A stretch of DNA of 64,000 bases. Source: Thermoanaerobacter sp. GTDB lineage: Bacteria > Bacillota > Thermoanaerobacteria > Thermoanaerobacterales > Thermoanaerobacteraceae. Of the stretch, positions 28,821-29,878 are shown piece by piece (the first letter of the stretch is position 1; every line of letters starts with the position of its first letter). The stretch spans positions 1 through 64,000 of the forward strand of contig JADBKJ010000006.1 of NCBI GenBank assembly GCA_014896455.1. Reading direction: 5' to 3'. The position numbers and the translations under genes were made by a program. The notes below the pieces were generated by a model. It ran no database searches. It was not told the origin of the DNA and was given only the letters and a program-made list of their open reading frames with translations.

Positions 28821-29393
28821 ATGAGCCAATGGCGAATTGTTTTAGCAGACAGTAGTGATTTGTCTCGGCAGCTCATAAAGAATGTGTTATTAGCGAATGG
28901 ACACTTAGTTTATGAAGCGAGAGATGGCGGAAGTGCTATAAGGCTTTGTCGCGCTCTTGCTCCTGATTTAGTTATAGCAGATTTGAATCTTGGCAATATA
29001 AATGGTTTTGAAGTTGGACGCATTATAAATGAAGATGATATAGCACCTGTAATTTTGATTACTTCTACTCCTCAAAGAGATTTTCTTGAGGAAATAAGAA
29101 AATATTCTGTATTTTCTTATTTATTAAAACCAGTAGACAGAGGGGTACTTTTGTCGACAGTTGAATTTGTCATAGAAAATTACAAAAAGTTTAGGAGCAT
29201 GAAAGAAGAAATTCAAAAATTAAAGCATGAACTTGAAGCGAGAAAAAAGATTGAAAAAGCAAAAGGGTATATTATGAAAGCTAAAGGATTGGGTGAAGAG
29301 GAAGCTTATAAAATTATGAGAAAGATGAGCATGGATATGTCAATTCCAATGGAAGTAATAGCTGAAATGATATTACAAGAATATAAAGAATAA
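28821..29393 (+). CDS. Response regulator with C-terminal ANTAR RNA-binding domain
   Basis: Receiver domain plus KAKGYIMKAKGLGEEEAYKIMRKMSMD ANTAR signature. Confidence 0.93.
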   Translation: MSQWRIVLADSSDLSRQLIKNVLLANGHLVYEARDGGSAIRLCRALAPDLVIADLNLGNINGFEVGRIINEDDIAPVILITSTPQRDFLEEIRKYSVFSYLLKPVDRGVLLSTVEFVIENYKKFRSMKEEIQKLKHELEARKKIEKAKGYIMKAKGLGEEEAYKIMRKMSMDMSIPMEVIAEMILQEYKE

Positions 29394-29414
29394 GAGGCGT
29401 GAGACCGCCTCTTA

Positions 29415-29678
29415 CAGACTGTAGACAAACTTTCGTAAAGGAGATATTTTGCAATCGGTGCGACTTGTGTGACAAAGCGGCAACAAAACTTAGCGAGACT
29501 GAGGGTGGAGGCAGGGCCGAAGCCAAGGAGGGCGGAGGCGGGCACCTGAGACAGGACGTCGATTGTGCCCGGTACCCTGCCGGAACCCGAAAGTCGAGTT
29601 TAGTTTTGTCGCTTTGGAACATCGGAGTACGATGCAAAATATCTCCTTTGAATATTTTTTAACTTTGTCAACAAACTG
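29415..29678 (+). repeat. Foldback/MITE-like element copy 1
   Basis: cagactgtagacaaac...gtcaacaaactg, imperfect inverted repeat over full length; flanked both sides by taagaggcgtgagacc(g/a)cctctt. Confidence 0.93.
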
Positions 29679-29878
29679 TAAGAGGCGTGAGACCACCTCT
29701 TTTATTCTTCAAACATGCTTTTTTTACTATTTTTTTATCTTTTATCATGAATCTCCTTTTGCAATAAGTTTTGTTAAATCTTCAACCTCATTTGGTTTAT
29801 TTATAATATTTCTTCTCCAATATCCATTATAATACATTTTAAAATTAAAAAGAATTTTTGTCATGATAATGATATAAT

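What the first reader, a model, noticed from the sequence alone, without database searches (positions are those of the whole stretch)
29391..29705. A family of ~264-bp foldback elements that occupy intrinsic terminators and are flanked by copies of the host terminator
Three full copies (29415-29678, 31371-31633 inverted, 36242-36506) and one left-end fragment (23264-23329) share left end CAGACTGTAGACAAACTTTCG. Copies 1 and 3 share right end GTCAACAAACTG; copy 2 is the same up to GTCAACAAA. The terminators differ between loci, but each full copy has its own locus's terminator on both sides: taagaggcgtgagacc(g/a)cctctt, aaggccgtaagatggcc(a/t)ttttattttgt, gagagtatttcgtatactctct. The simplest reading is insertion at a terminator with a 22-29 bp target duplication covering the hairpin, so the host keeps a working terminator. 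No transposase ORF is present, so it would be non-autonomous. Some IS families are known to target terminators or palindromes; which family mobilises this one is unknown to me.
Basis: seen in the sequence. Interest (0 to 1): 0.9.

Follow-up and report, generated by a model that had tools for sequence, protein, structure and literature searches.

The report
Mini-transposon that duplicates terminator hairpins
Short mobile DNA elements in this heat-loving bacterium insert precisely at the hairpins that end gene transcription and copy the whole hairpin to both sides; the same habit, with the duplication as long as the hairpin itself, appears across a large family of bacterial jumping genes (IS1182) whose best-studied member instead destroys its target hairpin.

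Summary
The 264-bp foldback is a MITE with about 85 left ends in the window's genome, and it occurs in all nine searched relatives of the genus. Its partner was found: a 1.56-kb insertion sequence with the same ends (CAGACTGTnGACAAA...TTTGTCAACAAACTG) encoding an IS1182-family transposase (NCBIfam E=1e-146). In complete Thermoanaerobacter genomes 44 of 51 copies pass a strict direct-repeat test. The repeat is the terminator hairpin, 16-40 bp; in 75 of 80 clean copies its midpoint lies within 1 bp of the hairpin dyad (random 6%). Empty sites with a single terminator exist in five relatives (copy 1) and three (copy 2). Of 52 named IS1182 elements from Bacilli, Clostridia and Negativicutes, 50 have a strong repeat (19-35 bp), 48 centred exactly on a hairpin. 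The published member IS1272 also targets terminators but deletes the hairpin; hairpin duplication was drawn there only as a hypothetical pathway. Cutting at the feet of an extruded cruciform is the favoured mechanism, inferred, not shown. Verdict: new variant of a known kind.

The parts
29391..29413 (+). proximal copy of the host terminator hairpin (target duplication), copy 1; no T-run follows it
   Evidence: single hairpin TAAGAGGCGTGAGACCGCCTCTTTTATTC in G002, G003, G005, G006 and G009
29415..29678 (+). MITE copy 1, 264 bp, ends CAGACTGTAGACAAACTTTCG...AACTTTGTCAACAAACTG, one long foldback
   Evidence: fold -117.4 kcal/mol, z -9.6
29679..29701 (+). distal copy of the terminator hairpin, followed by the T-rich tract
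31350..31364 (+). terminator hairpin core on the right-end side of copy 2
   Evidence: single hairpin in G003, G009 and G007
31371..31633 (-). MITE copy 2, inverted; right end atypical (CAACAAA|ATAAAAT), possibly also an assembly joint
31634..31653 (+). [quoted passage not shown]
36206..36593 (+). probable assembly chimera: stretch taken from another locus (GAGAGTATTTCGTATACTCTC) that carries MITE copy 3 at 36242-36506 and both hairpins (36220-36241, 36508-36529)
36242..36506 (+). MITE copy 3, 265 bp, identical at 14 places in the fetched G000 stretches
23230..23263 (+). 34-bp palindrome (terminator-like) next to the truncated copy; no second copy in the window
23264..23329 (+). left-end fragment of the MITE, truncated

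Best explanation
The element is a MITE mobilised in trans by an IS1182-family transposase. The transposase recognises the ends CAGnnTGTnGACAAA and inserts the element across an intrinsic-terminator hairpin, joining it to the two strands at the two feet of the stem, so that gap repair duplicates the entire hairpin. The duplication length is therefore set by the target's own hairpin and not by a fixed stagger. In each direction of transcription the proximal hairpin loses its U-tract (it is followed by element sequence) while the distal one keeps it. Transcription should thus run through the element and still stop before the neighbouring gene. Shown: family identity, shared ends, hairpin duplication, empty sites, dyad centring. 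Inferred: mobilisation in trans, an extruded cruciform as the substrate, retained termination.
For: Autonomous 1560-1566-bp IS with the same ends, eight copies fetched from G003 and two from G004; transposase NF033551 IS1182, 489.8 bits against a cut-off of 270. 80 clean copies: duplication 16-40 bp, 64 midpoints exactly on the hairpin dyad and 75 within 1 bp, against 6% for random placement. 44 of 51 copies in complete genomes pass the repeat test, against 1 of 1498 mismatched flank pairs. The cuts fall 1-3 bp outside the outermost G-C pair in 57 of 75; Spearman rho between duplication and stem length is 0.73. No orientation bias (22 against 20, 34 two-sided). Empty sites in relatives; copy 2's terminator occupied in opposite orientation in G005; the terminator at the copy-3 locus taken by different MITEs in G002 and G004 and by an IS in G007. 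50 of 52 named IS1182 elements show the same, 48 centred exactly, rho 0.72. A T-run or A-run flanks 74 of 80 and 44 of 50 sites.
Against: The linear correlation with stem length is only moderate (r about 0.6, slope about 0.5), because hairpin length is hard to define in A/T-rich terminators; a preferred size of about 24 bp cannot be excluded. One full IS copy (L143) has a 6-bp repeat and no hairpin; L222 lies in an AT-rich non-hairpin and L231 has only one hairpin. Within the wider family, proteobacterial elements (ISCfr1 type, about 29% identity) show only short or no repeats and IS1272 deletes its target (PMC5678879, PMC4923244), so the behaviour is not universal. No biochemical evidence for a cruciform.
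Confidence: 0.82

Rival explanations
1. Fixed-stagger insertion: the transposase makes an ordinary duplication of about 24 bp and merely prefers sites near a palindrome, for instance by reading the dyad as a double-stranded DNA motif.
For: The duplication length distribution peaks at 22-26 bp.
Against: Lengths range from 16 to 40 bp, stay centred on the dyad, and rank-correlate with stem length (rho 0.73 in the genus, 0.72 in other genera). Target sequences share no primary motif apart from A/T-rich feet.
Confidence: 0.17
2. Transcription-coupled targeting: the transposase is attracted to the terminating RNA polymerase or the nascent RNA hairpin, not to a DNA structure.
For: Most targets have a T-run or A-run and so look like real terminators.
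Against: Cuts are symmetrical about the dyad on both DNA strands, and the element has no orientation preference relative to the T-run.
Confidence: 0.12
3. The hairpins are cargo: each element carries terminators at both ends and moves with them.
For: Every full copy in the window has a hairpin on both sides.
Against: The hairpin differs at almost every locus, and the same hairpin is present singly at the empty site in relatives.
Confidence: 0.01
4. Random insertion followed by selection: only insertions in terminators survive because they are harmless.
For: Insertions into terminators plausibly cost little.
Against: Selection alone would not place the duplication exactly on the hairpin dyad in 112 of 130 cases, nor lead different elements to the same hairpin in both orientations.
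Confidence: 0.04

Closest known systems
IS1272 / TnSha1 (IS1182 family), staphylococci; PMC5678879, PMC4923244
   Same: IS1182-family transposase; targets terminator and other hairpins without primary sequence specificity; insertion in both orientations; transposase ORF without a stop codon inside the element (PMC4923244), as in the Thermoanaerobacter IS.
   Different: IS1272 deletes or replaces the target hairpin and leaves no target duplication. Here the whole hairpin is duplicated; PMC5678879 drew this only as hypothetical pathway b.
Firmicutes IS1182 elements with ends CAGnnTGTnGACAAA (Bacillus, Neobacillus, Lysinibacillus, Romboutsia, Sporomusa and others)
   Same: Same ends, transposase 54-68% identical, hairpin duplication of 19-35 bp, nearly always perfect.
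   Different: Autonomous; most have the transposase stop codon inside the element.
ISCfr1 / ISPsp5-type IS1182 elements of Proteobacteria
   Same: Annotated as IS1182 family.
   Different: Other ends (GGCCGATTCTGTTGAAAAAGTA and similar), short or no repeat, no duplicated hairpin in the loci examined; about 29% identity.
IS1202 family, long-repeat group (PMC10132070)
   Same: Target duplications of 16-28 bp; outer TGT/ACA.
   Different: Unrelated transposase: the partner IS here matches the IS1182 model, not IS1202.
Group II introns at terminators (class IIC habit, from general knowledge)
   Same: Also use intrinsic terminators as landing sites; in T. wiegelii a group II intron sits just after the copy-2 terminator.
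   Different: RNA-based retrohoming just downstream of the hairpin, no hairpin duplication.

Membership tests
MITE (non-autonomous derivative of an IS) | short, no transposase gene, many copies, terminal inverted repeats | tested here: met
   264 bp, 88 left ends in the genome; ends CAGacTGTaGACAAActTT / CAGttTGTtGACAAAgTT
MITE (non-autonomous derivative of an IS) | shares its ends with an autonomous element | tested here: met
   1566-bp IS with CAGACTGTTGACAAA...TTTGTCAACAAACTG; only about 17 bp at each end are shared, so not a simple internal deletion of this IS
MITE (non-autonomous derivative of an IS) | mobilisation in trans by that transposase | not testable with these tools
   needs a transposition assay; G000 itself has only a decayed transposase remnant
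IS1182 family (partner IS) | transposase matches the family model | tested here: met
   NF033551, E 9.6e-147, 489.8 bits against a cut-off of 270; Pfam DUF772 and DDE_Tnp_1_6
IS1182 family (partner IS) | insertion into palindromes, reported for some members | tested here: met
IS1272-type hairpin replacement | target hairpin removed, no target duplication | tested here: not met
   hairpin duplicated in 44 of 51 copies in complete genomes and 50 of 52 named ISs
IS1202 family | IS1202-type transposase | tested here: not met
   partner transposase is IS1182
known structured RNA (Rfam) | match to an Rfam family | tested here: not met
   no match in window 22000-38000

The most novel reading that the evidence does not exclude
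A DDE transposase whose target duplication has no fixed length: it cuts at the two feet of whatever hairpin DNA extrudes, so the target's secondary structure alone dictates both where and how much is duplicated. A large Firmicutes clade of IS1182 elements and their MITEs have thereby specialised on intrinsic terminators as insertion sites that leave a terminator in place.
Probability: 0.6. Interest if true: 0.75.

Novelty: new variant of a known kind. Interest (0 to 1): 0.62.

Why it matters
Target-duplication length is normally a constant of a transposase and is used to classify insertion sequences; here it appears to be read from the target's structure. The result gives a testable natural case of the hairpin-duplicating pathway that the IS1272 authors only drew, and raises the question why one branch duplicates and another deletes the hairpin. 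It also gives a simple reason why such elements can reach tens of copies: they land where a terminator survives. It warns annotators that tandem terminators may be transposon footprints, and that this draft genome contains patched chimeras at these repeats.

Tried and rejected
IS1202 family was the first guess from the long duplications and TGT/ACA ends; it was dropped when the partner IS proved to be IS1182. A larger composite element was considered because many copies in this genome shared the same GAGAG hairpin and flanks; it was dropped because relatives have that hairpin once or twice only and the breakpoints vary. Rfam gave no match. A viral-contig scan with a host gene found nothing and was not informative. 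A first measure of hairpin length (maximal extension) correlated weakly with duplication length because A/T tracts extend the apparent stem (r 0.33); using the outermost G-C pair gave rho 0.73. In the named set the same measure gave rho 0.72 but a larger residual variance than the duplication itself, because a few AT-rich stems are measured badly. The review of IS families that is cited for palindrome targeting by IS1182 was not held, so what it says on duplications could not be read.

Full report
Check of the observation. The window holds two credible full copies of a 264-bp foldback, one further full copy in a doubtful stretch, and one left-end fragment. The end motif occurs six times in the window against 0.24 expected. 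A genome-wide search found 40 nearly full-length copies (only the best candidates were scored) and 88 left ends. Folding gives -117.4 kcal/mol, z = -9.6; no Rfam family matches.

A correction. Fifteen of the full-length hits share one score, and 14 places in the fetched stretches are identical to the window's copy 3. Most carry pieces of one locus, GAGAGTATTTCGTATACTCTC and its flanks, cut off at variable points and joined to unrelated loci. That hairpin occurs 21 times in this genome but once or twice in the relatives that have it. In G003 and G005 it is a normal occupied site with a perfect pair; in G002 it is empty. At the window locus the relatives carry another terminator and about 110 bp that are missing here. 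The stretch at about 36206-36593 is therefore most likely a gap-filling chimera; raw reads would be needed to prove it. Statistics below use only copies with a clean repeat, and the pass rate is quoted for the complete relatives (G002-G004).

The mobilising element. The same ends bound a 1560-1566-bp insertion sequence, of which eight copies were fetched from G003 and two from G004. Its single ORF matches NCBIfam NF033551, IS1182 family, at 489.8 bits. The window's genome keeps only a decayed remnant. G002 is Thermoanaerobacter wiegelii Rt8.B1, by identical record length and coordinates. MITE and IS share only about 17 bp at each end, so the MITE is not a plain deletion derivative of this IS.

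Target and duplication. In 80 clean copies the duplication is 16-40 bp (mean 23.9); its midpoint falls on the dyad of the best hairpin in 64 cases and within 1 bp in 75, against 6% for random placement. Opposite ends of the duplication pair in 68-89% of cases at the first eight positions, against roughly 12-59% when shifted by 1-3 bases, where the higher values come from A/T-rich feet. The cuts lie 1-3 bp outside the outermost G-C pair in 57 of 75; duplication length follows stem length with Spearman rho 0.73. A T-run or A-run adjoins 74 of 80 sites, and the element shows no orientation preference. In complete genomes 44 of 51 copies pass the test, against 1 of 1498 mismatched flank pairs; of the seven exceptions four are visibly decayed hairpin pairs.

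Empty sites. At copy 1, G002, G003, G005, G006 and G009 have a single TAAGAGGCGTGAGACCGCCTCTTTTATTC. At copy 2, G003, G009 and G007 have a single hairpin, G005 has an insertion in the opposite orientation, and G006 and G010 have insertions. At the copy-3 locus the local terminator is empty in five relatives and occupied by different elements in G002, G004 and G007, the last by the IS. No relative had two tandem terminators without an element.

Generality. A scan of named genomes with a transposase alignment fetched 80 loci, mostly from Bacilli, with some Clostridia and Negativicutes. Of 52 with both ends and sufficient flanks, 50 have strong duplications of 19-35 bp, 48 of them perfect; 48 are centred exactly on a hairpin and two are 1 bp off. 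A Bacillus mycoides plasmid element with a 43% identical transposase duplicates a 36-bp palindrome; proteobacterial IS1182 loci at about 29-30% identity do not duplicate a hairpin.

Mechanism. The simplest reading is that the 3' ends of the element are joined to the two strands at the feet of an extruded hairpin and that repair copies the whole hairpin. This matches pathway b of the model in PMC5678879, which was drawn as an alternative to the stem-loop replacement those authors observed for IS1272. The cruciform is inferred. After insertion the proximal hairpin is followed by CAGACTGT and lacks a U-tract, while the distal one keeps its tract; retained termination follows from sequence but was not measured.

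Comparison with what is known. PMC4923244 and PMC5678879 establish that IS1272 and TnSha1 target terminator hairpins and delete them, and cite a review that says some IS1182 members target palindromes. The present elements belong to the same transposase family and work like IS1272 in target choice, but differ in outcome. The searched library is open-access only, so a description of hairpin duplication elsewhere, or in ISfinder entries, cannot be excluded. Filed as a new variant of a known kind.

Noticed in passing
window 36206-36593; also L035, L040, L044, L049, L058, L071, L072, L079, L085, L086, L093, L098, L099, L101, L105: Probable assembly chimeras: one MITE locus patched into many gaps of the draft genome, cutting the end of two genes in the window.
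   Followed up: yes
window 35743-36220: The gene beside copy 3 has several small insertions and deletions relative to the relatives' sequences, suggesting low-quality sequence next to the chimeric joint.
   Followed up: partly
L135-L142, L144 and L271: The transposase ORF of the Thermoanaerobacter IS (9 of 9 copies) and of an Alkalithermobacter relative has no stop codon inside the element; translation runs into the duplicated host hairpin, as reported for IS1272.
   Followed up: partly
L143 (G004), position 200 in element orientation: A full IS copy with a 6-bp repeat CTTCAC and no hairpin; shows that short-repeat insertion outside hairpins can occur.
   Followed up: no
L039, L051, L096, L104: Elements with MITE ends and terminator duplications but partly or wholly foreign interiors; captured DNA or further assembly joints.
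   Followed up: no
L193 924-1498; L255 541-1115 (T. wiegelii): Group II introns sit right after the copy-2 terminator and, in L255, between CAGACTGT and TGACAAA of an IS1182 left end, just after the duplicated hairpin: two unrelated mobile elements share terminators as landing sites.
   Followed up: partly
window 23264-23340; L205: The truncated left-end fragment runs into CCCGGCACTCAA, a motif that also occurs inside a different MITE type in G002.
   Followed up: no
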